Shown piece by piece: positions 14,853 through 35,919 of a DNA stretch of 64,000 nt. Origin of the DNA: Longimicrobiales bacterium (GTDB taxonomy: Bacteria; Gemmatimonadota; Gemmatimonadetes; Longimicrobiales; Gaopeijiaceae). Position numbers and translations under genes: made by a program. Where the stretch lies: assembly GCA_951813395.1 (NCBI GenBank), contig OX638356.1:2430501-2494500 (forward strand), given 5' to 3'. The notes under the pieces are model-generated. The model saw only the letters and a list, made by a program, of their open reading frames with translations. It was not told where the DNA came from and ran no database searches. Every line of letters starts with the position of its first letter. Positions within the stretch are counted from its first letter, which is position 1.

Positions 14853-14901
14853 CGGACATAATTAGCGAACATCGAACCCCCCCAAATCACGCCAACTCCA
14901 A

Positions 14902-14945
14902 TCGGGGCGGCCGGATTCGAACCGGCGACCTCCTGCTCCCAAAGC
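14902..14945 (-). repeat. attL: 3' half of tRNA-Pro
   Basis: These 44 bp are identical to 35846-35889, the T arm, variable loop and anticodon side of the tRNA-Pro(TGG) gene. After AAAGC the sequence departs from tRNA. Tyrosine recombinase elements at tRNA genes typically leave such a 3'-end duplication at the distal border. Confidence 0.85.
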
Positions 14946-15886: not shown

Positions 15887-16041
15887 GGCACGCCCAACTT
15901 ATCGTCGGCCCCCGTTCGTGTCATGCGCCCGATGTTAGACTACGTTGGGTCCGGCGCCCTCGGCGTGCCGTGACGCCTCCAGATCATGAACGATCCCAAA
16001 CATCCCCCCCAGCACCGGGAGAACCACAGGTGGCAGGTGAG

Positions 16042-19467: not shown

Positions 19468-20624
19468 AGAAGCCGGTTCCGTCCACAGGCGAGGCCGCGC
19501 GGTACGAGACGGTCTTTGGCGAGGTCTCCGAGATCGTCGAAGCCGCCCGGAGGTCGGCGGCCCGTTCGGTAAACGCCGTTATGACCGCCGCGTACTGGTT
19601 GATCGGACGGCAGATCGCCGAACTCGAACAGGAAGGGCGGAGCCGGGCGGAGTACGGCAAGGAGACCGTCGAGCGGCTCGCGGCCGATCTTTCGGCGCGA
19701 TACGGCCGGGGTTTCTCGGTCCGTAACGTGTGGCTCATGCGTGCGTTCTACCTCGGATGGCCGATTGTGCAGACACCGTCTGCAGAATCGGGAGACGATC
19801 GAATTATGCAGACAGTGTCTGCAGAATCCCTGCTGGACACCATCCGGGCACGGTTTCCGCTCCCCTGGTCCGCCTACGTTCGGCTGCTCTCGGTGCGGAA
19901 CGAACGTGCCCGTACCTTCTACGAGGCCGAAGCGCTTCGCGGAGGCTGGACCGTTCGCCAACTCGACCGACAGATCAACACCCAGTTCTACGAGCGGACC
20001 GCCCTTTCGAGGAACAAGGCCGCCTTGCTCGGCGAGGGCGGTACGGCGCGTCCCGGAGACAGCATTCTTCCTGAGGAAGAGATCAAGGACCCGTTCGTCC
20101 TCGAATTCCTCGACCTGAAGGACGAATACTCCGAGAGCGACCTTGAGGACGCGCTGATCCGCCACCTTGAGTCCTTCCTCTTGGAACTGGGAGGGGGTTT
20201 CTGTTTCATCGCCCGGCAAAGGCGGCTGCGCATCGGCGACCAGTGGTATCGCGTCGATCTTCTCTTCTTTCACCGCCGCCTTCGGTGTCTCGTGGTCATC
20301 GACTTGAAGATTGGTAGGTTCACGCACGCCGACGCCGGGCAGATGCACCTCTACCTGAACTACGCCCGGGAGCATTGGGTCCGCCGGGAGGAAAACCCCC
20401 CGGTCGGGTTGATCCTTTGCGCTCAGAAGGACGAGGCCGTCGCGCGGTATGCGTTGGAAGGCCTCCCCAACAAGGTCATGGCAGCCGAGTACCGGACTAC
20501 GCTGCCGGACGAGGAGCTCCTCGCTTCGGAGATCGAACGCACCCGGACGATGCTCATCGAGGGCATGGCGACCGATGACCCGAATGGTAGGTCCTCCACC
20601 CCGAAAGGGGGAGGGTTCTCATGA
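19464..20624 (+). CDS. YhcG-type PD-(D/E)XK nuclease (DUF1016)
   Basis: A 386-residue protein. The N-terminal DUF1016 domain has AAYWLIGRQIAELEQEG (about 41-57) and RGFSVRNVWLMRAFY; the C-terminal nuclease has Asp265 in YRVDLLFFHRR and the D280-L-K282 motif of VVIDLK, with QMHLYLNYAREH following, as in the YhcG family. Start ATG overlaps the helicase stop by 4 bp. The segment at about 103-120 contains two near-copies of QTxSAES encoded by palindromic DNA. YhcG proteins frequently sit beside restriction-modification genes; a nuclease partner of the helicase and methylase is inferred. Confidence 0.9.
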   Translation: MKKPVPSTGEAARYETVFGEVSEIVEAARRSAARSVNAVMTAAYWLIGRQIAELEQEGRSRAEYGKETVERLAADLSARYGRGFSVRNVWLMRAFYLGWPIVQTPSAESGDDRIMQTVSAESLLDTIRARFPLPWSAYVRLLSVRNERARTFYEAEALRGGWTVRQLDRQINTQFYERTALSRNKAALLGEGGTARPGDSILPEEEIKDPFVLEFLDLKDEYSESDLEDALIRHLESFLLELGGGFCFIARQRRLRIGDQWYRVDLLFFHRRLRCLVVIDLKIGRFTHADAGQMHLYLNYAREHWVRREENPPVGLILCAQKDEAVARYALEGLPNKVMAAEYRTTLPDEELLASEIERTRTMLIEGMATDDPNGRSSTPKGGGFS

Positions 20625-23599
20625 TCCCGCGAGAGTGCAAGCGGCTGGCCGAGGTCGATTTCCCGATTGCCGAGGTCTCGCGCCACGCTGTTCGGGAGAA
20701 GTCGATCCGGCACGGTCATCCGTCCACGCTTCACCTCTGGTGGGCACGTCGTCCGCTCGCATCGTCGCGGGCCGTGCTGATGGCTCTCCTGCTCCCGGAT
20801 CCGTGCGACCCGCACTGCCCGCCCGCGTTTAGGAAGGAGGCACGGCGGGTTCTGCTCGGCATGGCGGGACGCCCCTCCGGCTGGACCGGCGAGGTCGAGA
20901 CGGAAGAGGGCCTTCGTCGAATCATCCTGAAGTTTATCGCAGACTTCGCGAACTGGGATCACGCGGCGAAGCAACCATGGCTGGAAACGGCCAGGGCGCT
21001 GGTGAGAGCCGCCCACGGGAACGACGTGCCGCTGGTAGCGGATCCGTTCGCTGGCGGCGGTTCGATTCCGCTGGAAGCGCTTCGGCTCGGTTGCGAGACG
21101 TTCGCCAGCGACCTCAACCCGGTGTCTTGCCTGATCCTCAAGGTCTTGCTTGAGGACATCCCACAGCAGGGGCCGGGGTTGGCCGAAGAACTCCGAAGAG
21201 TTGGCAAAGCGATCCGTCACCACGCCAAGCGGGAACTTGCCGATCTCTACCCGATCGATCCGGATGGCGCGACGCCCATCGCCTACTTGTGGGCGCGCAC
21301 GGTGCGCTGCGAGTCGCCGAGGTGCGGCGCGGAAATCCCGCTTATGCGGTCTTTCTGGCTATGTACGAAGCCAAACCTCAAGCGGGGTAAGAACCGCAAC
21401 CGCAAGCGGGCGCTGAGGCTTTCCGTCGAGAGAAACGACAACGGACCGCCTCGGGTCGCCTTCGAGATATTCCAACCGGAAGCAGCAAGCGAAGTGCCTT
21501 CGGGAACCGTGTACCGGGCAAAGGCAACGTGCCCATGCTGCCGAGCAGTCTTGCCGCCGGAACGCGTGCGTTCGCAACTCGCCGCTCAGCGCGGGGGCGC
21601 CGACGTAATCTTCGACGCGGACGGCAACCGGATCGGCGGAGCACGCATGACGGCTGTGGTAACGCTGCGGCCAGGTGAGAGGGGGCGGCACTACAGGCTG
21701 CCAACGGCCGCAGACTACGCGGCGGTGCGTCGGGCCCAGGCGCGCGTGGCGCGGACCTTGGCCGCGTGGGATTCTGGCGGTAGCCAGGGGCTCCGCCCGG
21801 TGCCGGACGAGCCTCTCCCGCCGATTGGGACGCTCGGCTTTCGCGTCCAGCGCTACGGAATGTGCCAGTGGGGCGACCTGTTCACGGCTAGGCAGAAGGC
21901 CGCGCTGACGTCTTTGGTCTCCCGGACGGCTTCGACGCTGATGGACGATACCTGGGCTTCGCTGCTTGCGCTCGGGAAGCTCGTCGATCTTGGAAACGCA
22001 CTATGTGAATGGATGCCCGGACAAGAGTGTCCATCCGCCGTATTCAAGCTCGGCAGAGTCAAACCGGGTTGGGACTTCGTCGAAGGCTGTGTCACCAGCG
22101 AGTCAAGCGGCTCGTTGCATAAATGCACTGCCAATCTCGCAGCAGGTGTTGTATCAGCGCATGTGAACAGTGCTTCGAATGGCCAAGTCATGCAGGCCAT
22201 GGCGCAGGACTCACCTCTGCCCGACTCCTCGTCACTTGTCTACTTCACAGACCCACCGTACTACGACGCGATTCCCTACTCCGACCTATCGGACGTCTTT
22301 CTTGTGTGGATGAAACGTACGCTATCGGATCACCCCGTACTATGGGATCCGTTCGATCCCGACAATCCCCTCTCGCCAAAGATCAGCGAGGTCGTCCAGG
22401 ACGAGACCAAGCAGGTCGACGGTCGACCTAAGGACCGTGAGTGGTTCGAGGAAACGATGGCGAAGGCTTTCGCAGAGGGTCGCCGTGTCCTGCGCGAGGA
22501 CGGCGTGGGCTCGGTGGTCTTCGCCCACAAGACCACGGAGGGGTGGGAGGCCCTACTTTCGGGAATGATTCGCGGCGGATGGACTGTGTCCGCGTCGTGG
22601 CCCATCGCTACCGAGATGCCCCATCGGATTCGAGCACGAGAGTCCGCTGCTCTGGCCACGAGTGTTCACCTCATCTGTAGGCCTAGGCCCGACGATGCCC
22701 CGGTCGGCGACTGGGCCGATGTCCTTGGGGAATTGCCGAATCGCGTAGGAGCATGGATGAAACGGCTTCAAGCGGAAGGTGTTCGCGGTGCCGATCTGGT
22801 GTTCGCTTGCGTTGGGCCTGCGCTTGAGGTGTTCAGTCGTTACCGCGCCGTCGAAACCGCCGAAGGGAGCGAAGTCGGCTTGCCCGAGTACCTGGAGAGA
22901 GTTTGGCAGGTCGTGGGGCGTGCCGCGCTCGAGCAGGTGCTCGGCGCGGCCGACGCAGGCACGCTCGAAGAGGATGCGCGACTCACTGCGCTGTTCCTCT
23001 GGACGCACCAGAGCACCGAGGTTGCTGAAGAGGAATCGGCCAAGAACGCCAAAGCGGATCGTGTCGCTGCCAAGGCAGCGGCGCGAGGGCTTAGCCTTCC
23101 CTTCGATGTAGTGCGCCGATTCTCGCAGCCCATGGGCATCGGACTCGAACGATGGACCGGTCGGGTGATCGGCCAGGCGAAGGGTGTCGTGCGCCTGTTG
23201 CCCGTATCGGAGCGAGCCGATGAGCTGTTCGGCCGTGACGGCACCGACACGGCCGCCGATTGGATCGAGAAGGATCCGCAGGCGGATCTGCAACCGGCTC
23301 TCTTCCCCGATTGGGAGACGACGCTGGCGCCAAGCGTCCGCCGTCGTCGCGGGGCGAAGTCGATCCTCGATTCGGACGACGCGTTGCACGTACCCGAAGC
23401 GACGACGCTGGACCGGGTCCATGCGGGCATGCTCCTCCAAGCAAGCGGTCACGCGAACGCGCTCAGGAAGCTGATCCAAGCCGAGCAGGACCGGGGACCC
23501 GACTTCCTTCGGCTGGCCAACGCGCTCTCCGCCCTCTATCCCCGTTGGAGCCGCGAGAAGCGCCTTCTGGACGCGATGATCCTGGTCGTCCCGCGTTGA
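20621..23599 (+). CDS. DUF1156 DNA methyltransferase
   Basis: A 992-residue protein starting with the DUF1156 region (FPIAEVSRHAVREKSIRHGH) and LHLWWARRPLASSR. The SAM motif DPFAGGGSIPLEALRLGCE begins at Asp141, and the amino-methyltransferase motif IV is DPPYYD at 544-549. In between are cysteine pairs that could form zinc ribbons (CESPRCG, CPCC). This family is found in predicted anti-phage clusters with a DUF499 ATPase and a helicase. It would methylate adenine or cytosine N in host DNA or act as the sensing part; specificity cannot be read from sequence. ATGA overlap with the nuclease gene shows tight coupling. Confidence 0.9.
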   Translation: MIPRECKRLAEVDFPIAEVSRHAVREKSIRHGHPSTLHLWWARRPLASSRAVLMALLLPDPCDPHCPPAFRKEARRVLLGMAGRPSGWTGEVETEEGLRRIILKFIADFANWDHAAKQPWLETARALVRAAHGNDVPLVADPFAGGGSIPLEALRLGCETFASDLNPVSCLILKVLLEDIPQQGPGLAEELRRVGKAIRHHAKRELADLYPIDPDGATPIAYLWARTVRCESPRCGAEIPLMRSFWLCTKPNLKRGKNRNRKRALRLSVERNDNGPPRVAFEIFQPEAASEVPSGTVYRAKATCPCCRAVLPPERVRSQLAAQRGGADVIFDADGNRIGGARMTAVVTLRPGERGRHYRLPTAADYAAVRRAQARVARTLAAWDSGGSQGLRPVPDEPLPPIGTLGFRVQRYGMCQWGDLFTARQKAALTSLVSRTASTLMDDTWASLLALGKLVDLGNALCEWMPGQECPSAVFKLGRVKPGWDFVEGCVTSESSGSLHKCTANLAAGVVSAHVNSASNGQVMQAMAQDSPLPDSSSLVYFTDPPYYDAIPYSDLSDVFLVWMKRTLSDHPVLWDPFDPDNPLSPKISEVVQDETKQVDGRPKDREWFEETMAKAFAEGRRVLREDGVGSVVFAHKTTEGWEALLSGMIRGGWTVSASWPIATEMPHRIRARESAALATSVHLICRPRPDDAPVGDWADVLGELPNRVGAWMKRLQAEGVRGADLVFACVGPALEVFSRYRAVETAEGSEVGLPEYLERVWQVVGRAALEQVLGAADAGTLEEDARLTALFLWTHQSTEVAEEESAKNAKADRVAAKAAARGLSLPFDVVRRFSQPMGIGLERWTGRVIGQAKGVVRLLPVSERADELFGRDGTDTAADWIEKDPQADLQPALFPDWETTLAPSVRRRRGAKSILDSDDALHVPEATTLDRVHAGMLLQASGHANALRKLIQAEQDRGPDFLRLANALSALYPRWSREKRLLDAMILVVPR

Positions 23600-23743: not shown

Positions 23744-26503
23744 ATGGATCCTTGGTACAGAGTCGCGACGTTGCGCCGGGAGGTGCGGGAAGGCCGCTCC
23801 TTCAGTCCAGACGAGTTCGCCATCGCGCTCGAACAGGTGGTCGCCGGCACTGCGCCGCCCGACTACAGCGACCCGGAGCAGTTCTTCGCGAGAACCTGCT
23901 TCACGCGGGCGCTCAGGGAGCACGCCGGTATGGCGCTGCGCCGACTCTCGGGCAAGACGGAGAACACCGCTCCGGTCCTCACTCTCATCACGCAGTTCGG
24001 CGGCGGGAAGACCCACACCCTCACCTCTCTGTATCACCTCGCCAGCACGGGCGAGGCGGCCGCCGGATTCCCCGGCGTGGAAGGTCTCCTCGGAGGGGAG
24101 GGGCTTGGATCCGTGCCTTCGGCCCGGGTCGGCGTGTTCGTCGGCAACGCTTGGGATCCGGCAGAGGGCAGGGAGACGCCATGGATCGACTTGGCTCGCC
24201 AGGTAGCGGGCGAGCCAGGTGTCACGGCGCTCGGGACTGCGGCAAGGACCACGCCCCCCGGGACCGCGACGCTGGGCAAGGTGTTCGCCGCCGCAGAGGC
24301 GCCGGTGCTGCTCCTGTTCGACGAGGTGCTCAACTTCGTAAACCGCCACCGCGCCATGGCCGACAGCTTTCACGCATTCATCCAGAACCTCACGGTCGCT
24401 GTCACTGGGACCACTTGCGCGGCCGCGGTCATCAGCCTGCCGCGCAGTCAAGTCGAAATGACCGACTGGGACCAGAAGTGGCAGGACCGGATCAGGAAGG
24501 TCGTCGGCCGCGTCGCGCGCGACCTCATCGCAAACGACGAGGCGGAGATCAGCGAGGTCGTCCGGCGTCGTCTCTTCGAGAATCTCGGCGGGGCTCGGCT
24601 CCGCAGGAGAGTGGCCAACACTTACGCTAACTGGTGTTTCGAGCGCACCGCACGGCTCCCGCGCGAATGGCTGGCCGTGGACACGGCGACGACCGAGGCA
24701 AAGGCCCGGGAGTTCCTACGCACTCGGTTTGAGGCATGCTATCCGTTTCACCCGGCGACGCTCTCGGTTTTTCAGCGGAAATGGCGGGCGCTGCCGCAGT
24801 TTCAGCAGACCCGGGGCGCGCTTGCGATGCTCGCCCAGTGGGTGTCGTGGGCTGCTCGCGAACACTTCCGCAAGGCGCGCACGGAGCCGCTGATCACGCT
24901 CGGATCCGCTCCGATGCATGTGCCGGAGTTCCGCGCGGTCGTGCTGGGCCAGTTGGGCGAGGCGCGCCTCGACGCCGCCATCGAGGCCGACCTAGCCGGA
25001 CAACAGGCCCACGCACGCGCGCTGGACGCGGACGCTAGGGGCGCACTGCGCGACATCCATCGGCGCACAGGCACGGCTATCCTCTTCGAGTCGTCCGGCG
25101 GTCAGGTGGACAAGGTTGCTCACCTGCCCGAATTGCGGTTCGCGCTCGGCGAGCCCGAGATCGACACAACGACCGTGGACAACGCGGCGGCCGCGTTGGA
25201 GGCGGCCGGGTTCTTCATCCGCAGCGTCGGAACAGACGGATACCGCATCCACTACCAGGCCACTCTGAGAAAGGTGGTGAGCGACCGGCGCGCCTCGCTC
25301 GACGAGGAGACCGAAATCAGACCGGCCGTCCGGAAGCTCGTCGAGGCGGAATTCGCGCGAGGAGCCACGTTGCCCCTCGTCCCCTTCCCCGGCACCGCGA
25401 CGGACATTCCAGACACGCCGCGCCTCTCGCTCGTGGTGTGCGATCCGGAGACGGAGTGGACGGACGCCGGGGCGGCGGCCGGACGAATCGCCGAGTGGAC
25501 TAGAAGGCGCGGCAACTCGGATCGGCTCTATCCCGCATCGCTCGTATGGTGCGTCAGAAAGCCCGGGCGGGCAGTGATCGACAAGGTGGAGCTTTGGCTG
25601 GCGTGGCAGCGAGTCGCCACCGAAGTGGCGCAGGGCGTGTTGGGCGCGGACTTTGACCGCGCGGATCGCGCCGGCGTGAGCGCCATGGTCAGGGACTCGG
25701 AGGAGGCCGCCAGGGACGAGGTTTGGGCGAGCTACCGTTTCGCCGTACTGTCCGACAACAGCGAGGAGACCGGCCTCAGGGTCATCGACTTGGGTGCGGG
25801 CCATTCCAGCGGAAGCCAGACCCTTTGCGGCCGTGTTGTGAGCGCCATGAAGGCCGAGGCACTTCTCAACGAGTCGGTCGGGGCTGGCTACATCGACCGC
25901 CATTGGCCACCCGCGTTCACGGATTCGGGGGCGTGGCCGCTCAGGAGCCTGCGCCAGAGCTTCCTCGATGGCTCGCTGACGCGGCTGAGCGATCCAGAGA
26001 AGGTCCTTCGGCGGCAGATCGCCGCGCTCGTGGCCGCAGGCGAGTTCGGTTTGGCGTCCGGTGATCGACCCGATGGAGGCTACGGCAGATTTTCGTATGC
26101 GGAGCCGATCCGGCAGGAGGAGATCACGTTCGATCCAGATGTGTTTCTCCTCACCAGAAGGAAATCCGAAGCCCTGACAACCCCGCCCGAGCCGGATCCG
26201 CCGCCCCGCGAGCCGCAGCCCGGCGACACCGGGGCAGAGCCCGAGCCGGATCCGGCACCGCGAGCCACCGCTGAGGAGTCGAGGGCGATCCTTCAGGTTC
26301 TCGGCACGATACCCGCCGAAGTCTGGAACCGGCTCGGCATCAGGATTCTGCCGAAGCTTCGGCCCTTGGACGATCTCAGAGTCGGCATTGAACTGTCAGC
26401 GACCGTCAGCCCCGAGAGGGTTCAGAGTCTTGAGGCCGAACTGACTCAAGCCCTTCGGGATCTCGACCTGGAAGGCCGGGTTCGCATCGTCATGCGAGCC
26501 TAA
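23744..26503 (+). CDS. DUF499 AAA+ ATPase
   Basis: A 919-residue protein of the DUF499 family. The N-terminus has FFARTCFTRALREHAG and Walker A TQFGGGKTHTL (83-93, Lys89); Walker B is LLLFDEVLNFV (about 188-198). The C-terminal region holds a proline-rich linker (PEPDPPPREPQPGD) before a small terminal domain. It lies 144 bp after the DUF1156 gene, the longest gap in this otherwise overlapping operon. DUF1156 and DUF499 proteins recur together in predicted anti-phage systems. The last 14 bp overlap the 3' end of the oppositely oriented Cap5 gene. Confidence 0.9.
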   Translation: MDPWYRVATLRREVREGRSFSPDEFAIALEQVVAGTAPPDYSDPEQFFARTCFTRALREHAGMALRRLSGKTENTAPVLTLITQFGGGKTHTLTSLYHLASTGEAAAGFPGVEGLLGGEGLGSVPSARVGVFVGNAWDPAEGRETPWIDLARQVAGEPGVTALGTAARTTPPGTATLGKVFAAAEAPVLLLFDEVLNFVNRHRAMADSFHAFIQNLTVAVTGTTCAAAVISLPRSQVEMTDWDQKWQDRIRKVVGRVARDLIANDEAEISEVVRRRLFENLGGARLRRRVANTYANWCFERTARLPREWLAVDTATTEAKAREFLRTRFEACYPFHPATLSVFQRKWRALPQFQQTRGALAMLAQWVSWAAREHFRKARTEPLITLGSAPMHVPEFRAVVLGQLGEARLDAAIEADLAGQQAHARALDADARGALRDIHRRTGTAILFESSGGQVDKVAHLPELRFALGEPEIDTTTVDNAAAALEAAGFFIRSVGTDGYRIHYQATLRKVVSDRRASLDEETEIRPAVRKLVEAEFARGATLPLVPFPGTATDIPDTPRLSLVVCDPETEWTDAGAAAGRIAEWTRRRGNSDRLYPASLVWCVRKPGRAVIDKVELWLAWQRVATEVAQGVLGADFDRADRAGVSAMVRDSEEAARDEVWASYRFAVLSDNSEETGLRVIDLGAGHSSGSQTLCGRVVSAMKAEALLNESVGAGYIDRHWPPAFTDSGAWPLRSLRQSFLDGSLTRLSDPEKVLRRQIAALVAAGEFGLASGDRPDGGYGRFSYAEPIRQEEITFDPDVFLLTRRKSEALTTPPEPDPPPREPQPGDTGAEPEPDPAPRATAEESRAILQVLGTIPAEVWNRLGIRILPKLRPLDDLRVGIELSATVSPERVQSLEAELTQALRDLDLEGRVRIVMRA

Positions 26504-28088
26504 CCATCGGTTCGTTGCCCACGTTGAGGATCCGCAGTCTCGGCACCATACGATCGCCCTCCGTTGAGAAATCGTAGACCACCAGCTCAGGGTGATAGCT
26601 GTCGAACGCCTGTCCGAAGAACACGCATGCCGCATTGGAAGCGCACGGCAGCACATGTACACGGCGAACACCATGAGCGTCGCCCAACCGGTGCAGCAAC
26701 TCCTGCATGTGCTGTCGGAAAGAAGTGCCATCGTCCGGATGACCCAAAGCGCCGTTGCCTCGGTAGTGCCTCCAGGCGACGACAGATACGACGCTCATAC
26801 CAAGAGACTCCGCTGTAGACCGCGTTGCTTCCGGCACCCCCGTTAGCCCCAACAATAGGGACACGTCGTCCTCCGAATCCGTGAGCAGGTCGAGACCCTC
26901 GATCGTGTAGAACTCGCCCCGTGGCTCGTTGACCGGCCAATACCACAGGCCCCTCTCTCGGTACCGCAACATCGGTGTGATGTCGCACTTGTTCCCGAGC
27001 TTCGCACCGAGTGCGATCAGAGCCGGCATCAGGCCCATCGCAAACAGCGCCGCACGATATCGTTCGCCGTGCGCCTGTTTCAAGATCTCTTCGGCCGTCC
27101 GCTCCACCGCAGCGGCAATGACGTCCCAAAGGACCTCGCCCTTCAAGAGCCGCAGGACAAGCTCGTTGTCGTTGACGGTCTGGAGCCTGCCGTCGAGCCG
27201 CGCACCAATGGGCTTGAGCGCCCGAGCCGCCTGCTTGGACGACGGCAGTGCGATTCTCTGCCGATGCACGGGCCATGCTACTCCAAATGCTGGCATTGGC
27301 TCAAGAGATAGCCCGTCGAGCAGCTCGGTCGCCGTCTCGCAGAAGTGACGCCGTATCGCCGAGAGGACGGATGCCGGATAGTCGGCTTTGGCGATCGCAT
27401 CCACCAGCCGGTGGTGCGTGTCGCAGAGAAGCAGGATGTTCTCAGGGTCGTCCGCAAGGTCGCCCGACAGGTGCAGCACGCCACGGGTGCCCCTCTCCGA
27501 CGACGCGACGTTGTGCGCCAGTGTGGCGAAGTTACCTCGCTCATGGGTAACAGGGTCTTTGGTTAGGTCCGCTCCGCACCCCTCGAACATGCAGCGCCCG
27601 TGGGCGTCCAACAGCACTTGGTTGCGCGTTGGCACACTGATCGCTGAGCCGCGGCCCTTCTCGCGGGTTTTCTGTTCGAGTTTTGCGAAGAACGCACTCC
27701 ATCCAGCCTCCGCCTGTTGCCTGCGCTGGTCGTACGACTCCCGCCACACCGCCGTCAACTCGGCCAGGTTGCCCGTGTGTTCCTCGGTCAACGTATGGCC
27801 CTGCCAGCACCGCAGTTCCATCGGGACGACCATGCCTTCGTTGTACGCCTGCAGAGCGCTGACGCTCTCCGCCGCTGAGAGACAGAAGCGCGAGGCCACA
27901 ACCACCACCCCGCCCCTCAGGAGCACAGCCACGACTGCTTCCGGCCCTTCGTCCATCAGCACACCGACGCTATCCCAAGACACCAGTGCCCGCACAGCCT
28001 CAGCGTGGTCCTTGACCGCGTCAAGCTCCGTCATCGGCAGCTCGCGCGTCTGCACGACCGCCAACTCCCGGGGATCAACCATCACCAT
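26490..28088 (-). CDS. cap5: CBASS effector Cap5: HNH endonuclease with SAVED domain
   Basis: A 532-residue effector. The HNH nuclease is at about 160-235 with zinc Cys in GRCMFEGCG, AHNVAS, and CDTHHRLVD. The SAVED cyclic-oligonucleotide receptor follows (about 290-530) with LFAMGLMPALIALG, DDVSLLLGLTG and VHVLPCASNAACVFFGQAF. In CBASS the ligand activates double-strand DNA degradation. Known Cap5 proteins begin close to the HNH domain; here about 150 extra residues precede it with no recognised motif. ATG 28088 is chosen (28082 is alternative). Last gene of the CBASS operon, overlapping cap3 by 14 bp and the DUF499 gene tail to tail by 14 bp. Confidence 0.88.
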   Translation of the reverse strand: MVMVDPRELAVVQTRELPMTELDAVKDHAEAVRALVSWDSVGVLMDEGPEAVVAVLLRGGVVVVASRFCLSAAESVSALQAYNEGMVVPMELRCWQGHTLTEEHTGNLAELTAVWRESYDQRRQQAEAGWSAFFAKLEQKTREKGRGSAISVPTRNQVLLDAHGRCMFEGCGADLTKDPVTHERGNFATLAHNVASSERGTRGVLHLSGDLADDPENILLLCDTHHRLVDAIAKADYPASVLSAIRRHFCETATELLDGLSLEPMPAFGVAWPVHRQRIALPSSKQAARALKPIGARLDGRLQTVNDNELVLRLLKGEVLWDVIAAAVERTAEEILKQAHGERYRAALFAMGLMPALIALGAKLGNKCDITPMLRYRERGLWYWPVNEPRGEFYTIEGLDLLTDSEDDVSLLLGLTGVPEATRSTAESLGMSVVSVVAWRHYRGNGALGHPDDGTSFRQHMQELLHRLGDAHGVRRVHVLPCASNAACVFFGQAFDSYHPELVVYDFSTEGDRMVPRLRILNVGNEPMVRLA

Positions 28089-28563
28089 CGCCCCTACATT
28101 CCTCACGCAGCGGCTTGAATCGCCACCGTTTTCGCACGAAAACGCGGGTCTTTTCCGTCCCTACCAACGCAAAGGCCAGCGGCCGCCCTGGGTTCGCCCG
28201 TAGGCACTCGGCCCAATCCTTCCTATCGATTCCCGATGGTGTCGGCACCGGCTCTGGATGCGTGTGCCAGGTTCCGAGGTATATCGACCGGTCATCCGAA
28301 CGGGCGAACGTCCTGCACACGACGCGTTGATGCCCGGGGTCACAAAGCGCAAAGGAGAACCGCGTGCGGCGATCGCGGGGCATCGGGGTAGTAACCTCTT
28401 CGATCCAGATGTCCCGCCGGTCGACGGATGTCGTTCCGATCAATACGCCGAACGACTCGGTCGCGTCCGGCGCAATCTGACGATGCGCATGCCAGACGGC
28501 CATCACTTCATCGCACACAGCCACCCGCCGCCCGTATCCCTTGAAACGGCGCAATGCCCTCAC
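28075..28563 (-). CDS. cap3: CBASS Cap3: JAB/MPN isopeptidase
   Basis: A 162-residue JAMM metalloprotease-like protein. The Glu in ATESFGVLIG and the HxH...D motif in TWHTHPEPVPTPSGIDRKDW give the zinc site. In type II CBASS Cap3 removes the CD-NTase from conjugated targets and so counters Cap2. The GTG at 28563 is preferred because it overlaps the cap2 stop as GTGA, matching the spacing of the rest of the operon; the frame is open to ATG 28638, which would overlap cap2 by 79 bp. Confidence 0.9.
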   Translation of the reverse strand: MRALRRFKGYGRRVAVCDEVMAVWHAHRQIAPDATESFGVLIGTTSVDRRDIWIEEVTTPMPRDRRTRFSFALCDPGHQRVVCRTFARSDDRSIYLGTWHTHPEPVPTPSGIDRKDWAECLRANPGRPLAFALVGTEKTRVFVRKRWRFKPLREECRGDGDG

Positions 28564-30281
28564 CCACCGCAGATGTCGCAGTCGCGATCGTGCAGCGGCA
28601 AGATCTGCAACGACTCGGCGAAGTGCCGGTGTCGCCACGTCACCGCAAGAGACGCCCGCTTTGCTTCCGTTTCACTCCCCTTCCAGCTTACCTTCGACGA
28701 TGTTGGCACTTCGCCCGCGAGGAATCGCACGGCCAAGTCCGCTGCGACGGAAGCCGTGTAGCTCGCAGCAATCCCGCTGTAGGGCAGGAACTGGGTGCCG
28801 CAGCCTCCGTGGTTTCGCATCACAACTTGGTCTGGTGCCAGGAAGTTCAGGTTCGACGCGAGTCCCCGCCCGAGCGTCTTCGGGTCGACGTAGGCGCAGA
28901 GCCAACACCCCTTCATCCCTGGCAGCGCCAAGATAGCATGGCCGCCAATCCCATAGCCCTCCAGCCAGCAGCTCAGGACCGGCACGTCTACGGATTCCGT
29001 ACGACAGTATTCCGCGAAGACTCGTTCCACCGTCGGTACACCGATCGCAATCACCACGAGGTCAAACGACCGAAGTACGGCTGGATCCCGCAGGCTTTGG
29101 AGCCGCTTGGGCCAGTGCGTCACTTCCGCCCACGGGTGCCTTAGGGCGATTTCGCCCGCCAGTGCCTCGGTCTTGAGCCGGCCGATGTCCTTCGCCGACA
29201 GGGTGTGGCGGTAGAGGTTCTTCTCAGACAACGTGTCCGGGTCGGACAACGTCAGACTCCCGACCCCAGCCGATGTCAACCGCAGTGCCAATTCGCTGCC
29301 GACCGACCCGCAACCCACGAGCAGAACGGCCTTCTTCCCCAAGTCCAGTGAACCACCTCCCCGCGGCACCAAAGACCGCCGTGCCAGCGATCTGACTCGG
29401 TAGGGGGTCACCGACCAGCGTGCAGTCTCCTCCTCCGAGATCGGCAGCCGACCCCGCTCACTCCTGTGCAAGCGGATCGCGAACATTGTCTCCCCCTCGG
29501 GGATCGGAGCCGAGAAGACCAGCCAGTACAGGCCACTGCTTTTCTTGTTCAACCTTCGGAGGTCACGAGCGCCGGTGGCGTCCACGTGGTCAATCGCCTT
29601 CAAGTACCATGGCACCAAGTCGATCAGCGTATCCGGCGCGGGCTCCAGGTTTTTCAACCGCAGAGCTACGGCCTTCCCGACCGTCTGGCGCGTTCCCCAT
29701 CGCGCGCAGCCGCGCACAGAGTCCAGCCGCCGGTTGTTGGCCAACGAACCCGCCAATGCGATCGGTCTGTTCCGCAAGTCCACGCCGGGCTCCGCGCGTG
29801 GCGGTCTCACCTGCAGCCCCTCGGACTCCTCACCATCCCATGCCACGAAGAGTTCGTTCGGCCCGCCATCCGCCGCGCGGCACAGAATCGCCCAGTGGGC
29901 CTCGAACTCCCGCAACAGCTCCGCCCGGTTGTACTTGGGATCCTCGATCAGCCGCCTCAGCAGTCCAACGTGCTCCTCGACCGTGTCTTGGTAGACGCGC
30001 TCGGGGCATTCGATGTTTACTGACGTTGACGCGACATCGCCGATACAGACTTCGCCCCCGTGCCCGTTCCCATCCGAGAGTACGTGCGCCAACTTCCCGA
30101 AGCCGTGGCCACCTTCGAGATCGAACTTCGGGACACGAAGGATTTCTTTTTCGAAGTCGTGGACGAGCTTGATGGGCCGACCACCAAGCTGGAACGTCAC
30201 TCTCAGCCGCAATCCGCCGTCGATCAGCGCCGCATCGTGGCCAGCCGTCCGGAGGCTCTGACAGATCGACTCCCGGTTCAT
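28560..30281 (-). CDS. cap2: CBASS Cap2: E2-E1 fusion conjugating enzyme
   Basis: A 573-residue protein with an N-terminal E2-like region (HGGEVCIGDVAS holds a candidate catalytic Cys) and a C-terminal ThiF/E1 adenylation domain: VLLVGCGSVGSELALRL, LSDPDTLSEKNLYRH, and later VPVLSCWLEG and GCWLCAY. In type II CBASS Cap2 activates and transfers the C-terminus of the CD-NTase to target molecules, which primes the cyclase. The ATG at 30281 overlaps the CD-NTase stop as ATGA; the open frame reaches 30404 but that would run through the upstream gene. Confidence 0.92.
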   Translation of the reverse strand: MNRESICQSLRTAGHDAALIDGGLRLRVTFQLGGRPIKLVHDFEKEILRVPKFDLEGGHGFGKLAHVLSDGNGHGGEVCIGDVASTSVNIECPERVYQDTVEEHVGLLRRLIEDPKYNRAELLREFEAHWAILCRAADGGPNELFVAWDGEESEGLQVRPPRAEPGVDLRNRPIALAGSLANNRRLDSVRGCARWGTRQTVGKAVALRLKNLEPAPDTLIDLVPWYLKAIDHVDATGARDLRRLNKKSSGLYWLVFSAPIPEGETMFAIRLHRSERGRLPISEEETARWSVTPYRVRSLARRSLVPRGGGSLDLGKKAVLLVGCGSVGSELALRLTSAGVGSLTLSDPDTLSEKNLYRHTLSAKDIGRLKTEALAGEIALRHPWAEVTHWPKRLQSLRDPAVLRSFDLVVIAIGVPTVERVFAEYCRTESVDVPVLSCWLEGYGIGGHAILALPGMKGCWLCAYVDPKTLGRGLASNLNFLAPDQVVMRNHGGCGTQFLPYSGIAASYTASVAADLAVRFLAGEVPTSSKVSWKGSETEAKRASLAVTWRHRHFAESLQILPLHDRDCDICGG

Positions 30282-31315
30282 GCACCCTGCGATGTCCTGA
30301 CGAACCCAGGCGTCAGATAAGTCGCCTTCGCGGTTTTGGATCCACCGTTCGGCGAATCGGGTATCTCGAAGTCGTCGCCGAAGAGTTCGTTCAGGATCTT
30401 GCACTGCTCTCGCTCGTCGCTCAGCGCCTCCGCCTTCCTCAGCTGTTCCTTTAGGCGGCTGAGCTTGTTGTAGAGTTGCGTCCCGGTGTCGAGGCTCGAT
30501 CCGTAGAAGATGTCGCGGTACGGTTCGACTGGCAGATCCACACGGACACGGTACTTTCCGTCCTCCTCTTCATCGAAGTAGCCAGCGTCGAGGATCGCCT
30601 CCACCGTCGCGCGCAGTGCCTCCAGATCCTGGGAGGCGCCCTCCGTGCTGAACGACGATTCCAGGTTTTGTTTCACCATGACGGTGAGTCCGATCGAGAA
30701 TACTTTGGCGCCGACCGTTTCGCTGAACTGCTCGTCGCGCCAGCGCTTGACGTAACGCACCAGCCGATAGAACTGGCTGCGCACGTCTTGCGCTTCGTCG
30801 TCGTCGCAGTCACTGAAGTCAACGACCCACTCCATTAGCCCGAGGGGGTCCGCAATCGCCCACTCCCGGTTATTCTCATCGGAGTTCTTCTTCCCCACCG
30901 CGAGGTAGTGCTGGTCACCCGACCTCTTGTAGATGATGAGGTCGATGTGGAGATCGTCGCCGGCGTAATCGGCGGTCACGCACGGCTTCTTGATCTTGGC
31001 ATTCTTGAAGCCCCGATTCTCAAGAACTTCGAGTGCCTTCTTTTTCGGCGTAACCGGGTTCTCCGGCGCGGTATCCGCGTCGACCACCAGCGCACGGTCA
31101 ATGTCGTAGTCGCCCGAGATCGGGATGATTCCCGTGTGTGTCTTCAGCGATCCCTGGATGAAGTCGTCCACGATCGGGTAGCCGGCGTCCTTGAATTCCT
31201 TGGTGACGTGCCGCTTAATGCTGTCGTCGCGGTCCCGTGCCTTCTTGTAGGCATCGTCCTCGCGGCCCAGCTTGATCTTGCCGCGGAACTTGTTGAAGTG
31301 GGTCTGGATGCCCAT
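30278..31315 (-). CDS. CBASS CD-NTase (cyclic oligonucleotide synthase)
   Basis: A 345-residue nucleotidyltransferase. The active site has Gly55-Ser56 in DFIQGSLKTHTG and the metal-binding acids in GDYDIDRAL (69-73), with a third acid in DLHIDLIIYK (about 115-125). It makes the cyclic di- or trinucleotide signal that activates Cap5. ATG 31315 is chosen because GGAGGGACCC precedes it. The protein ends in TSQGA; a small C-terminal residue fits its use as a Cap2 conjugation substrate. Clade and product cannot be assigned from sequence alone. First gene of the operon; a tRNA gene ends 73 nt upstream on the same strand. Confidence 0.92.
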   Translation of the reverse strand: MGIQTHFNKFRGKIKLGREDDAYKKARDRDDSIKRHVTKEFKDAGYPIVDDFIQGSLKTHTGIIPISGDYDIDRALVVDADTAPENPVTPKKKALEVLENRGFKNAKIKKPCVTADYAGDDLHIDLIIYKRSGDQHYLAVGKKNSDENNREWAIADPLGLMEWVVDFSDCDDDEAQDVRSQFYRLVRYVKRWRDEQFSETVGAKVFSIGLTVMVKQNLESSFSTEGASQDLEALRATVEAILDAGYFDEEEDGKYRVRVDLPVEPYRDIFYGSSLDTGTQLYNKLSRLKEQLRKAEALSDEREQCKILNELFGDDFEIPDSPNGGSKTAKATYLTPGFVRTSQGA

Positions 31316-31388
31316 GGGTCCCTCCATTGGACTGTGTGACTGACGTTGTTACTTGCGAGAAGGAGACCTTCCGCGCTAGCTTCTCCAA

Positions 31389-31477
31389 CGGAATGGGGCG
31401 GGATTCGAACCCGCAAAGGCCTCGCGGCCTCCGGACCTTGAAGTGTCCGGTGTGTTCGCCAACACACAGCCCATCCC
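31389..31477 (-). tRNA. tRNA-Sec-like gene (anticodon TCA), divergent second copy
   Basis: An 89-nt cloverleaf on the minus strand. It has an 8-bp acceptor stem (GGGATGGG with CCCATTCC, one G-T pair), discriminator G, 6-7 bp D stem with a 4-nt loop (GGCG), anticodon stem CCGGAC/GTCCGG, a long variable arm AGGCC-GCGA-GGCCT and a 5-bp T stem GCGGG/CCCGC with TTCGAAT loop. An 8+5 acceptor branch, long D stem, G73 and anticodon TCA are bacterial tRNA-Sec features. The anticodon loop is odd: ACTTCAAG is 8 nt, one more than normal. No CCA is encoded. It differs strongly from the canonical tRNA-Sec at 49842-49938. Confidence 0.6.
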
Positions 31478-31481
31478 TTCT

Positions 31482-31514
31482 AGCCCCTCGGCGGTCCGCC
31501 AACCGTCGAGGGGC
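31482..31514 (-). terminator. Strong inverted repeat just 5' of the tRNA-Sec-like gene
   Basis: A perfect 9-bp inverted repeat AGCCCCTCG (31482-31490) and CGAGGGGCT (31506-31514) encloses a second small palindrome GGCGGTCCGCC. It could end transcription coming from the right, insulating the tRNA and CBASS unit, or be a mobile-element end. No T-run on the minus strand side is obvious. Confidence 0.4.
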
Positions 31515-32124
31515 TGTTATAGAGGGGAACCTTAGAGATAACCTCGGCTCACCCCGTGCGCTAGGGGTTGAAGCAAAAACCACTAGTCCTAGTGCCACAG
31601 GATCGCGGGTACGCTGTATGTTGGGGTGGTGGGATTCCGCCGACCAAGTGCAGTCCGGTACTCGGCCCGGCCCCCGCTCAGCTGACCTCGGTCCCCTCGC
31701 ACGACCAGCGACACGGGCAAAACGTCCTCAATCCCACAGCACGCTTGTGTCAATCGGCGCGGGAACGGGCGCGGCCTGAGCCGCTCGCTGAGGCACCGCG
31801 GTTCGGCTCGGGCGAAGCAGTGGCGCTCACCGTGCCGCGGTCGGCGGTGGGCAGCCAGCAGGTGACGGTCGGGTGCGCAACATCGGACGGCACCGTGACG
31901 GGCGGAAAACGACTACACGGCCTCGTCGCACCCCCCATGCCAACCCGGTCCTGTACAGCGCCAAGCTGCTGGAGGTCGCGGCAGACGACTAACGAGCGTG
32001 ACGATCCGGAGGACTACGCGACCGCCATCTAACGGCAGGGCGAGGGGGCGCTCTCGCTAGGGCAGTCCCGCCCGCGAAGGCCCCCTGAGATGGTCGGGGA
32101 TCGGAATCGATGGCCTCGTCCCCC

Positions 32125-32188
32125 CGGCCGGATTGAAACCGATTGCGGATGGAATCCGTAGTATGCCGCCCTTCGGGTCACCGAAGCG
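32125..32188. repeat. 64-bp dispersed repeat, copy 2, with hairpin
   Basis: It aligns to 13191-13254 without gaps (53 of 64 identical). The hairpin CTTCGG-GTCA-CCGAAG is at 32171-32186. It lies in the gap upstream of the mobilization module. Confidence 0.65.
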
Positions 32189-32497
32189 TGAAGGGTATCA
32201 CGACCACGAGGCGAAACGCGGGAGGAGACGCGTAGTTCAGGTTGATTCATCCCACGGCGGAGCTGGTGCCCGTGCCCATCGTCAGGGGCGCTGGCGGGAA
32301 CCGGTCGCCGCTCTGGCTTGGCAGGGACATGGACGGCCCGGCATCGCGGGTCTTCATCCCATCGGTGGCCGCGCTCCGCGAGGCCCGTTGAACGGCTTCT
32401 CCGAAGCGTTTGCGGGGGTGCTCCGCCACCGCACCGCTTGCAGTCGCGGGCGGGTCTCGGACACGCCGCCGCCGGGGGTGTCGGACGCGGCTAAGGC

Positions 32498-32545: not shown

Positions 32546-32594
32546 TTGCCCCTTCGATCCCCAACAGACCCGCGCTCCGATGGATTGCGCGGGC

Positions 32595-32609: not shown

Positions 32610-32634
32610 GTTCCCCCCGTGACGGCGCATCCCG

Positions 32635-32973: not shown

Positions 32974-34531
32974 GTTCCTCGCGCACGGGACCGGCTCGGC
33001 CGGCAAGGCGGCAAGCTACCTCCTCGGGGAGCGGGACGCCGCCGGGAAGCTGCGCGAGGGCGTCGAGGTGTTGCGCGGGAACCCGGACATGGTGGCCGCA
33101 GTTGCCGACTCGCTCGACTTCGAGCACAGGTACACCTCCGGCGTAATCGCCTGGGCACCGGACGACCACCCCACCGACGAGCAGATCGAAGCTGTGCTCG
33201 ACGAGTTCGAGAAGACGGCTTGGGCGGGGCTGGAGCCCGACCGCTACGCCTGGGCGGCCGTCCTGCACCGTGAGGAGCGCGGAGGCGCTCACGTCCATGT
33301 CCTCGCCGCTCGGTGCGACCTGGAGACCGGCCGAAGCCTCAACATCGCGCCTCCGGGTTGGCAGCGGACGTTCGATCCGCTCCGAGACGCCTTCAACCAC
33401 GAGCACGGCTGGGCTCGCCCGGACGATCCCCAGCGGGCCAGAGTGCAGCAGCCCGGCCACCGCGCCTACGTCGAAGCGGCACAGCTGCGGACCGGCCTCC
33501 GACTCGAAGCCTCTCCCCGCGATCTGATCCGGGACTACCTGCTCCAGCGCGTCGAGAGCGGGACGGTGCGGAATCGCCACGAGATCGTCGCCGCGCTCCG
33601 GGAGGCGGGCCTCGAAGTGCCGCGCCAAGGCATGGACTACATCACCGCGCTGGACCCGAAAACCGGGGACCGGTGGCGACTGAAAGGAGAACTGTACGGA
33701 GTTGATTTCCAACGCGAACGATTTGACCGAACGGCTGCGAATGCGGCTGGAACACGAGCGCAGGGAGATCGAGGAGTTGACCGCGAACGAGCTCGAAAGG
33801 CTCGCCGAGCACTCGCGGCGCGTCGCGAGGAGCGCGGTGCGTACCATCGAGCGCGATACGGAGGAGGCGACCGGCAAGATGCGCGAGTTGCTGGTCAAGG
33901 CATGGCAACGGCCGCTGATCGTCGGCCTGAGTCTTTGGATCGGTTTCTTCGGCGGAAGCTGGGCGACGATGCGCTGGTTGGCGAGCAGCATTCAGGACCG
34001 GATCGTGACCCGGGCCGAACTGAACCGGGACATCGAGGACGCCCGGCGGACGCTGGCCCAGCTGGAGGTGGACACCTGGGGGCTCGTGTTCCACGAGATC
34101 AAGGGCGAGCGGTTCGTAGTGGTGCCGGACGGGGTGCTGGCCGATCCGCCCTGGTGGGTGGACGGGGATCGTCCGGCGTTGAAGCTGTCGAACGAGTGAA
34201 GGAGGTCTATGACCGCGTTAGAGGAGCAGTTGACGAGGGCCTTGCGGAGGCTGTGCGCGCAGTACGAAACGGAACAGCAACGGCACTCCGAGCAGGTCGA
34301 AGCCTTGCAAGGGCACGTCGAGCGGCAAGGCGGAGAGATCGAAGCCTTGCGGCAGCACGTCGAGCGGCAGAGCGCGGAGTACGAAGTCTTGCAGATGCGA
34401 ATCGAGCGGCTCGACGCGCTGGCGACACGCTTGGCCGAGTATTTCGGGACATCCGCCGTCGCGAGACCGCGCGGCCTCCGTATCTGATGCGCCGCCCGGG
34501 ACCGGACCGCGATCAGGGTCCGAGCCGCTGA
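32963..34531 (+). CDS. mobA: MobA/MbeA-like relaxase
   Basis: A 522-residue relaxase, close in size to ColE1 MbeA. The N-terminus MHVKFLAHGTGSAGKAASYL is followed by metal-binding histidines in GGAHVHVLAARCD (about 107-119) and a conserved HEIVAALREAGL block (about 208-219). It would nick oriT and pilot the strand in helper-dependent transfer. ATG 32963 is chosen over the upstream frame because it makes the known MobC-MobA overlap. Its C-terminal third is arginine- and glycine-rich and low in complexity because two other genes, mobB and mobD, are read from the same DNA in other frames. Confidence 0.88.
   Translation: MHVKFLAHGTGSAGKAASYLLGERDAAGKLREGVEVLRGNPDMVAAVADSLDFEHRYTSGVIAWAPDDHPTDEQIEAVLDEFEKTAWAGLEPDRYAWAAVLHREERGGAHVHVLAARCDLETGRSLNIAPPGWQRTFDPLRDAFNHEHGWARPDDPQRARVQQPGHRAYVEAAQLRTGLRLEASPRDLIRDYLLQRVESGTVRNRHEIVAALREAGLEVPRQGMDYITALDPKTGDRWRLKGELYGVDFQRERFDRTAANAAGTRAQGDRGVDRERARKARRALAARREERGAYHRARYGGGDRQDARVAGQGMATAADRRPESLDRFLRRKLGDDALVGEQHSGPDRDPGRTEPGHRGRPADAGPAGGGHLGARVPRDQGRAVRSGAGRGAGRSALVGGRGSSGVEAVERVKEVYDRVRGAVDEGLAEAVRAVRNGTATALRAGRSLARARRAARRRDRSLAAARRAAERGVRSLADANRAARRAGDTLGRVFRDIRRRETARPPYLMRRPGPDRDQGPSR
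33702..34199 (+). CDS. mobB: MobB/MbeB-like membrane protein nested in mobA
   Basis: A 165-residue protein fully inside mobA in another frame. The N-terminal half is charged coiled coil (LRMRLEHERREIEELTANEL); a membrane helix follows at about 68-88 (PLIVGLSLWIGFFGGSW); the C-terminal part is soluble (GERFVVVPDGVLADPPWW). ColE1 mbeB is likewise nested in mbeA and its product anchors the relaxosome at the membrane. The start is TTG at 33702 with AAGGAG upstream; ATG near 33738 is an alternative. Protein-like composition here, against the poor composition of mobA in this stretch, supports it. Confidence 0.8.
   Translation: MISNANDLTERLRMRLEHERREIEELTANELERLAEHSRRVARSAVRTIERDTEEATGKMRELLVKAWQRPLIVGLSLWIGFFGGSWATMRWLASSIQDRIVTRAELNRDIEDARRTLAQLEVDTWGLVFHEIKGERFVVVPDGVLADPPWWVDGDRPALKLSNE
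34209..34487 (+). CDS. mobD: MobD/MbeD-like coiled-coil protein nested in mobA
   Basis: A 92-residue protein nested in the 3' end of mobA. It begins MTALEEQLTRALRRL, as in MbeD, and is mostly coiled coil with repeated units HVERQGGEIEALRQ and HVERQSAEYEVLQ. A strong AAGGAGG precedes the ATG at 34209. In ColE1 the mbeD product blocks entry of related plasmids; here the role is inferred from position and resemblance. With mobB it gives the exact ColE1 gene order C-A(B,D). Confidence 0.8.
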   Translation: MTALEEQLTRALRRLCAQYETEQQRHSEQVEALQGHVERQGGEIEALRQHVERQSAEYEVLQMRIERLDALATRLAEYFGTSAVARPRGLRI

Positions 34532-34623
34532 TGGCTCAGGGCAGGGCTGGATCTGGCGCAGGCAACGCGGCTTCGCGAAGTTTCGGACGCGCAGATCGTG
34601 CGGTCCATCACGAGAGGAATCGA

Positions 34624-35796
34624 ATGATGGCACGCACGAAACGAAGTCGGCGCTCGTACAGCGCCGGCGAATGGGGCCGGAATCGGGTCCGGGTCTTTAC
34701 CGATCCGAGAACCGGCATCATCCAGGTCGAGTGGCGCGAGAACGGGCGCAGGCTCACCCGGTCGCTGAAGCACCGTAACTGGAACCGGGCCAAGCGGCAG
34801 GCGGACAAGATCGCCGCCGGACTCGCCGAGCCCGCGACCACGGACACGGCGGAAGCCGAGTCCGAGCCGCTCACCTTGGAAACGCTGCTTGAAATCTACG
34901 GTGAAGAGGTCACCCCCACGAAGAGCGGGCGGTCGCAGAACCACGACCGGGCCATGATGAGGAGGTTCCTTCGGTTCTTCGGGAGGCACCGGAAGGCCGA
35001 GACCCTTTCGCAACGCGACTGGGACCGCTTCATCCGGGCGCGGCGCGTGGGCAAGGCCGGCGGTAGCCGCAGACCCGTGTCCGAACGGACGATCGAATAC
35101 GATCTGAGGCTGCTACTCGCGATCCTTAACTGGGCCGCGAAGTCAAGGGACGCGGAGGGACGGCTCCTCCTCGAATCCAACCCGCTCCGGGGCCTCAAGC
35201 TGCCAAAGGAGAAGAATCCGAGACGGGTGGTGCTCACCCAGACAGAGTACGAAGCGTTGCTCGGGGTGTCCGCCCAGGTGGACTGGCGGTTCCGAGTGGC
35301 CTTGGTGCTCGCCCACGAGACCGGGCACCGAATCGGTGCCATTCGGCGGCTTCGTTGAGCCGACATCGAACTCGATGGCCGGACCATCCGGTGGCGGGGA
35401 GAGCACGAGAAGACCGGTTACGAGCACCGGACGCCGGTCACGGCCATGGCGGGGGCCGTTCTGGAGGAAGCGCGGAGGCACAACCCCGGGATCGGGGACG
35501 CGCCCCTGCTGGCCGCGCCGAAGGATCCCTTCGCGAGCATGAGCCGCTCGCTGGCGCGGGACTGGTGGAAGAAGGCCGAGACGCTTGCGGAGCTGGAACC
35601 CAAACGCGGCCGCGGCTGGCACTCGCTGAGGCGGAAATTCGCCTCCGACCTGATGGACCTGCCGCTGAAGGTGCTCTGCGACCTCGGCGGCTGGAAGACC
35701 GCCGAGACGGTCCTCCAGTGCTATCAGCGCCCCGACGAGGACCGGCTCAGAAAAGCCATCGAAGAGTACCGGGGGGTTGGCTCCACGTCCAAATAG
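34624..35796 (+). pseudogene. int: Tyrosine integrase with an in-frame TGA
   Basis: 390 codons from ATG 34624 (GAGAGGAA upstream), ending 50 bp before the tRNA-Pro gene, the position expected for the island integrase. The N-terminal arm-binding and core-binding domains are complete. The catalytic domain has Arg in GHRIGA, HSLRR, and Tyr in VLQCYQRP. Codon 245 (35356-35358) is TGA where the left remnant and the family have Trp (LRWADI). Reading continues in frame to 35796 with no other defect. Without readthrough the product lacks most catalytic residues, so the gene is probably dead; a UCA-anticodon tRNA on the same island makes readthrough worth testing. Confidence 0.85.
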
Positions 35797-35889
35797 CGGA
35801 CATAATTAGCGAACATCGAACCCCCCCAAATCACGCCAACTCCAATCGGGGCGGCCGGATTCGAACCGGCGACCTCCTGCTCCCAAAGC
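35311..35889. repeat. 579-bp direct repeat, right copy
   Basis: The partner of 14367-14945. It covers the 3' part of the integrase gene and the 3' half of the tRNA-Pro gene (attR). The sequence beyond 35889 completes the tRNA and is chromosomal. Confidence 0.93.
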
Positions 35890-35919
35890 AGGCGCGCTAC
35901 CGAACTGCGCCACGCCCCG
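35846..35919 (-). tRNA. tRNA-Pro (anticodon TGG)
   Basis: A 74-nt cloverleaf without encoded CCA. Acceptor stem CGGGGCG/CGCCCCG with discriminator A, anticodon stem CCTGC/GCAGG around loop TTTGGGA (anticodon TGG, reads CCA), and T stem with TTCGAAT. It is the integration site of the island: the last 44 bases are repeated at 14902-14945. The gene is intact, so the island restored it. Confidence 0.95.

What the first reader, a model, noticed from the sequence alone, without database searches (positions are those of the whole stretch)
31389..31477. Second, divergent UCA-anticodon tRNA (tRNA-Sec-like) 73 nt upstream of the CBASS operon
It has the bacterial tRNA-Sec 8+5 acceptor branch, G73, long D stem with 4-nt loop and long variable arm, but an 8-nt anticodon loop and no encoded CCA, and it differs widely from the canonical selC at 49842-49938. 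A genome with two UGA-reading tRNAs is unusual. It may be an island cargo tRNA, a decoy for tRNA-cutting phage or host nucleases, a suppressor, or a decayed integration site.
Basis: partly seen in the sequence, partly recalled or inferred. Interest (0 to 1): 0.75.

Follow-up and report, generated by a model that had tools for sequence, protein, structure and literature searches.

The report
Odd tRNA-Sec-like gene on defence island
A small, perfectly folding transfer-RNA-like gene, built like the bacterial selenocysteine tRNA but with an oversized anticodon loop, rides as one-off cargo on a mobile defence island; it is real and unusual, but nothing shows that it is used or belongs to the neighbouring anti-phage system.

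Summary
31389-31477(-) folds as a complete class II tRNA with tRNA-Sec architecture: 8+5 acceptor branch, 6-7 bp D-stem with 4-nt loop, G73, and 29 of 30 pairs Watson-Crick; the one wobble is G3:U70. The anticodon loop has 8 nt (ACUUCAAG), so UCA is likely but not certain. The tRNA-Sec covariance model beats the general tRNA model for it (44.7 vs 30.2 bits), the reverse of the host's Ser/Leu tRNAs, but stays under the gathering score (47). Missing CCA is normal in this genome. The gene lies in the variable cargo of a 20.9-kb integrative element (14946-35889) inserted at tRNA-Pro, carrying Hma, type II CBASS, a relaxase and an integrase. It is a singleton: absent from the rest of its genome, two sister elements, 21 loci with related CBASS cyclases and about 1,170 genomes searched. 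The CBASS link is therefore accidental juxtaposition as far as can be tested. The element's integrase has one in-frame TGA at a Trp conserved in all 54 other gene copies examined, so opal suppression is testable, but that TGA is also what plain decay would give. Best reading: a mobile-element-borne, tRNA-Sec-like "allo-tRNA" of unproven function.

The parts
31389..31477 (-). tRNA-Sec-like RNA gene (89 nt without CCA): 8-bp acceptor, 6-7 bp D-stem with 4-nt loop, 6-bp anticodon stem with 8-nt loop, 5-bp variable arm, 5-bp T-stem, G73; only wobble pair is G3:U70
   Evidence: fold z -4.1; Rfam RF01852 44.7 bits; RF00005 30.2 bits; ARAGORN
31437..31444 (-). 8-nt anticodon loop ACUUCAAG; probable anticodon UCA at 31439-31441
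   Evidence: fold and sequence
31482..31515 (-). 34-nt near-perfect hairpin directly 5' of the tRNA (4 nt gap)
   Evidence: -26 kcal/mol, z -4.85; blastn self inverted match
30278..31315 (-). CD-NTase (CBASS cyclase), 73 nt 3' of the tRNA
   Evidence: PADLOC Cyclase E 1.4e-112; start placed by alignment to relatives
28560..30404 (-). CBASS E1-E2 (Cap2)
   Evidence: PADLOC E 2e-168
28075..28638 (-). CBASS JAB protease (Cap3)
   Evidence: PADLOC E 2.1e-50
26490..28106 (-). HNH-SAVED CBASS effector
   Evidence: PADLOC E 9.7e-177
15970..19467 (+). HmaA-like helicase
   Evidence: PADLOC E 1.9e-167
20621..23599 (+). HmaB-like methylase
   Evidence: PADLOC E 1.2e-96
23744..26503 (+). HmaC-like ATPase
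   Evidence: PADLOC E 2.9e-86
31756..31921 (.). debris between tRNA and element backbone: integrase fragment (31756-31820) and a fragment similar to a repeated stretch in another genome of the genus (31810-31921)
   Evidence: blastn to integrase loci and to L202/L209
32906..34531 (+). relaxase-like gene of the element backbone; the shared backbone starts at 32065
   Evidence: 84% DNA identity to sister elements over 32065-35950 (L195) and 32065-35750 (L181)
34531..35796 (+). tyrosine integrase with a single in-frame TGA
   Evidence: translation; 110 of 395 phylum genomes hold relatives
35356..35358 (+). in-frame TGA at a Trp position (TGG in 54 of 54 other gene copies examined)
14856..14945 (+). 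left 90-bp direct repeat (att)
   Evidence: 100% identical to 35800-35889
35800..35889 (+). right 90-bp direct repeat (att), overlapping the 3' half of tRNA-Pro
35846..35919 (-). tRNA-Pro(TGG), integration target
   Evidence: ARAGORN, Rfam 70.6 bits
49842..49938 (-). canonical selC (tRNA-Sec, UCA, encodes CCA), chromosomal, outside the element
   Evidence: Rfam 79.7 bits

Best explanation
Shown: a structurally intact class II tRNA gene of the tRNA-Sec-like kind sits as private cargo in an integrative element. Inferred: it is transcribed towards CBASS, trimmed by RNase P/Z, receives CCA post-transcriptionally like nearly all tRNAs of this host, and is charged with serine (G73 and class II shape, the way SerRS charges tRNA-Sec) or alanine (G3:U70, the AlaRS signal). 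With UCA in an enlarged loop it would act, weakly, as an opal suppressor or simply be an accessory tRNA of the element; it most resembles the mobile, tRNA-Sec-like 'allo-tRNAs' described mainly from soil bacteria. It is not a working part of CBASS.
For: Fold with 30 pairs, no mismatch, z -4.1. Rfam Sec model beats the general tRNA model by 14.5 bits, while the host's Ser and Leu tRNAs are taken by the general model in clan competition. Inside an element bounded by 90-bp repeats at tRNA-Pro and outside the backbone shared with sister elements. Singleton. Sec machinery present in the host: SelB at genome position 2514120 and canonical selC. Allo-tRNA precedent, Ser/Ala charging and transposon association: PMC7609411.
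Against: No homologue found, so no covariation and no conservation. No sigma-70-like promoter or terminator match in 31200-32700. The 8-nt loop may block decoding. Allo-tRNAs as defined have a 12-bp (8/4 or 9/3) branch, this one 13 bp (8/5). Expression and charging are unknown.
Confidence: 0.5

Rival explanations
1. Inert passenger: a tRNA-like sequence picked up during mosaic assembly of the cargo and not used.
For: Next to gene debris (31756-31921); singleton; no promoter match; aberrant loop; lowest tRNA score in the genome.
Against: All stems are intact in a sequence far from any other tRNA found; random decay should have broken some pairs.
Confidence: 0.32
2. Element-specific opal suppressor: the tRNA reads the single TGA in the element's own integrase, so that full-length recombinase is made only when the tRNA is present.
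For: The TGA at 35356 is the only place in the element where a stop interrupts a frame with coding-like sequence on both sides; the frame downstream stays open for 145 codons including the catalytic end; dN/dS against the sister element is equal on both sides (0.20 and 0.19).
Against: The Trp is TGG in all 54 other gene copies examined, so the TGA is private and may be recent decay; two relatives carry internal TAGs (L193, L194), so nonsense alleles do occur. Ser or Ala would replace an invariant Trp. If the 8-nt loop reads four bases the frame would be lost. No significant fold after the TGA that could serve as a SECIS (z -0.61).
Confidence: 0.1
3. Cis-acting leader or RNA ligand of the CBASS operon (regulation of, or binding to, the cyclase).
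For: Same strand, 73 nt upstream; a hairpin precedes it; an alternative fold pairs its 5' part with the cyclase leader.
Against: 21 related cyclase loci lack it and share no upstream DNA with it; the leader pairing is weak statistically (11 of 300 leader shuffles reach the energy gap; 10% of random segments pair as well).
Confidence: 0.05
4. Bait that protects the cell's tRNAs from phage- or host-encoded anticodon nucleases.
For: Only its location in a defence island.
Against: No matching nuclease identified and no conservation near defence genes.
Confidence: 0.03

Closest known systems
Bacterial tRNA-Sec (selC; Rfam RF01852)
   Same: 8+5 acceptor branch, 6-bp or longer D-stem with 4-nt loop, G73, CUUCAA in the anticodon loop
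   Different: 8-nt anticodon loop; short variable arm; under the Rfam gathering score; a normal selC exists elsewhere in the genome
Allo-tRNAs and tRNA-Sec-like RNAs (Mukai et al. 2017, as reviewed in PMC7609411)
   Same: tRNA-Sec-like shape, Ser-type features, G3:U70 seen in some, sporadic distribution, some linked to transposons
   Different: those have 12-bp branches (8/4 or 9/3) and mostly sense anticodons; this one has 8/5 and a probable UCA in an 8-nt loop
Additional tRNA-Sec genes (PMC5330540: eight bacterial genomes with two)
   Same: second G73 tRNA-Sec-type gene beside a canonical one
   Different: those are copies with compensating mutations relative to the top candidate; this one is very divergent (the R1 model gives selC only 30.6 bits)
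Yeast mitochondrial tRNA-Thr(UAG)
   Same: natural 8-nt anticodon loop (PMC7609411)
   Different: mitochondrial, different origin, real codon reassignment

Membership tests
Bacterial tRNA-Sec | 13-bp acceptor/T branch as 8+5 | tested here: met
   fold
Bacterial tRNA-Sec | 6-bp D-stem with 4-nt loop | tested here: met
   (7 bp and 4-nt loop in the minimum-energy fold); aligned as such to RF01852
Bacterial tRNA-Sec | G73 | tested here: met
   G at 31389
Bacterial tRNA-Sec | score at or over the family cut-off | tested here: not met
   44.7 vs 47 bits
Bacterial tRNA-Sec | 7-nt anticodon loop with UCA | tested here: not met
   8-nt loop ACUUCAAG
Bacterial tRNA-Sec | very long variable arm | tested here: not met
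   5-6 bp and 4-nt loop
Bacterial tRNA-Sec | Ser charging, conversion by SelA, delivery by SelB | not testable with these tools
   SelB gene present in the genome
Allo-tRNA | 12-bp branch, 8/4 or 9/3 | tested here: not met
   8/5
Allo-tRNA | class II tRNA with SerRS or AlaRS signals and a non-Ser anticodon | tested here: met
   G73, G3:U70, UCA-type loop; charging itself not testable
tRNA-Ser/Leu | preferred by the general tRNA model over the Sec model | tested here: not met
   30.2 (general) vs 44.7 (Sec) bits; host Ser/Leu go the other way
CBASS component | kept next to related CBASS operons | tested here: not met
   0 of 21 loci
Decayed att site | partial or mismatched tRNA repeated at the element's ends | tested here: not met
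   intact stems; att repeats are at tRNA-Pro
Opal suppressor tRNA | reads UGA | not testable with these tools
   one candidate UGA in the element

The most novel reading that the evidence does not exclude
A mobile defence island carries its own tRNA-Sec-like opal suppressor, and its integrase needs that tRNA because an invariant Trp codon has become TGA: a self-contained, tRNA-gated recombinase.
Probability: 0.06. Interest if true: 0.8.

Novelty: new variant of a known kind. Interest (0 to 1): 0.38.

Why it matters
tRNA-Sec-like RNAs outside the Sec pathway are known mostly from soil metagenomes and their roles are open. This one has an uncommon combination (8/5 branch, 8-nt UCA loop, G3:U70), a defined mobile carrier and one concrete candidate codon, so its use can be tested directly. 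If it is inert, it is a caution that tRNA finders miss or mistype such genes.

Tried and rejected
(1) Relatives in phages and plasmids: only short scraps, mostly of the T-arm. (2) Viral contigs, loop + T-arm pattern: 8 hits; none showed a cloverleaf in single-sequence folding and none was called as this tRNA by ARAGORN; exact anticodon arm: none. (3) Single-sequence covariance model over the phylum: hits of 42-57 bits; those checked were ordinary Ser/Leu tRNAs. (4) Same model over 396 and 369 genomes of two further groups, centred on genomes with related cyclases: nothing at E 1e-8. (5) CBASS association: rejected. (6) RNA switch with the cyclase leader: not convincing. (7) Apparent conservation of 'one TGA' in many integrases: where the stop was located in fetched loci it was their normal C-terminal stop, not the internal site. 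(8) Sec insertion in the integrase: no significant hairpin after the TGA.

Full report
What is there. The minus strand of 31389-31477 reads GGGATGGGCTGTGTGTTGGCGAACACACCGGACACTTCAAGGTCCGGAGGCCGCGAGGCCTTTGCGGGTTCGAATCCCGCCCCATTCCG. It folds into a full cloverleaf at -48.7 kcal/mol; none of 200 shuffles does as well. Read with tRNA-Sec geometry the pairs are 8 acceptor, 6 D, 6 anticodon, 5 variable and 5 T; 29 of 30 are Watson-Crick and the remaining one is G3:U70 (direct from the sequence). ARAGORN reports an untyped tRNA. Rfam's tRNA-Sec model gives 44.7 bits, slightly under its cut-off of 47; the general tRNA model gives 30.2, the lowest of the 47 matches in the genome, where all others reach 49.7 or more. 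For the host's own Ser and Leu tRNAs the general model wins. So by covariance it lies on the tRNA-Sec side, as a poor member.

Features that weaken the tRNA-Sec label. The anticodon loop has 8 nt (ACUUCAAG), so UCA is only the likely anticodon; the variable arm is short. The missing CCA is not a defect: of 45 host tRNAs inspected, only canonical selC clearly encodes CCA behind the discriminator.

Where it lies. A 90-bp perfect direct repeat (14856-14945 and 35800-35889) that includes the 3' half of tRNA-Pro(TGG), with a duplicated integrase end beside it, bounds an integrative element of 20.9 kb. It carries Hma genes, a type II CBASS operon, a relaxase-like gene and a tyrosine integrase. Two elements in other genomes of the genus share 84% DNA identity with 32065-35950 and 32065-35750 and both stop matching at 32065; one of them also sits beside tRNA-Pro (L195). 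The tRNA lies beyond that border, in the variable cargo, behind a stretch of gene debris (31756-31921). No tRNA-like RNA of this kind was found in the parts of the sister elements that were read.

Is it conserved? There is no copy elsewhere in the genome and none in 23 genomes of the genus (only T-arm scraps). A covariance model made from this one sequence finds, in 395 genomes of the phylum, hits of at most 56.5 bits besides itself (118.6), and the hits inspected are ordinary Leu and Ser tRNAs. It finds nothing in 7 genomes with related cyclases or in 396 and 369 genomes of two further groups. The searches over 40 genomes used strict filters and the model has one sequence, so distant relatives could be missed. 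Of 21 loci with a related CBASS cyclase (50-75% identity), none has a tRNA-Sec-like gene and only one has any tRNA, a tRNA-Arg some 1.6 kb away. The CBASS neighbourhood is therefore not a functional argument.

Possible use. The integrase has exactly one in-frame stop, TGA at 35356-35358; the truncated copy at 14366 has TGG there, and TGG is found in 54 of 54 other gene copies examined (the loci partly overlap, so there are fewer independent genes). A scan for coding frames broken by a stop finds only this one in the element. A UCA tRNA could read it. Against this: the TGA is private to this copy; dN/dS is equal on both sides (0.20, 0.19), which fits a recent mutation as well as read-through; the tRNA's signals suggest Ser or Ala, not Trp; two other integrases carry internal TAGs. 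An apparent pattern of 'one TGA' in many relatives turned out, where the stop was located in fetched loci, to be their ordinary C-terminal stop.

Other ideas tested. The transcript could fold so that the tRNA 5' part pairs with the cyclase leader, but the support is weak (11 of 300 leader shuffles do as well; 10% of random segments pair as well). A 34-nt hairpin lies just 5' of the tRNA (z -4.85), role unknown. No sigma-70-like promoter or terminator matches were found in 31200-32700.

Comparison. The nearest described things are bacterial tRNA-Sec and the tRNA-Sec-like allo-tRNAs, which are Ser- or Ala-accepting, sporadic and partly linked to transposable elements (PMC7609411). Membership in neither is met in full: loop, variable arm and score fail for tRNA-Sec; the 12-bp branch fails for allo-tRNA. 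Second tRNA-Sec genes are known in a few bacteria (PMC5330540) but not as divergent as this. I file it as a new variant of the tRNA-Sec-like kind, of unproven function. That G3:U70 is the AlaRS signal and G73 is favoured by SerRS is from these papers; RNase P/Z processing and CCA addition are general knowledge; expression, charging and decoding are inference.

Noticed in passing
window 34531-35796: Integrase of the element is interrupted by one in-frame TGA at an otherwise invariant Trp.
   Followed up: yes
window 14856-14945 and 35800-35889: 90-bp perfect att repeats at tRNA-Pro(TGG) delimit an element carrying both Hma and type II CBASS; a truncated integrase copy at 14366-14852 just outside it suggests an earlier related insertion.
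   Followed up: partly
same-genus genomes G000-G022: This integrase family is strongly expanded in the genus: most genomes reached the limit of four scored matches, with up to 78 first-look candidates.
   Followed up: no
G001:C79, G002:C47, G003:C84, G006:C88: Contigs begin at or within selC in several relatives, hinting that selC is an integration site or repeat boundary; G004 and G034 have two strong tRNA-Sec matches each.
   Followed up: no
window 49842-49938: Canonical selC is the only one of 45 host tRNAs inspected that clearly encodes CCA.
   Followed up: partly
window 31482-31515: 34-nt near-perfect hairpin 4 nt upstream of the tRNA-like gene.
   Followed up: partly
window 63524 (-) and 56307 (+): Frames with coding-like sequence on both sides of a TAG; could be pseudogenes or antisense artefacts.
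   Followed up: no
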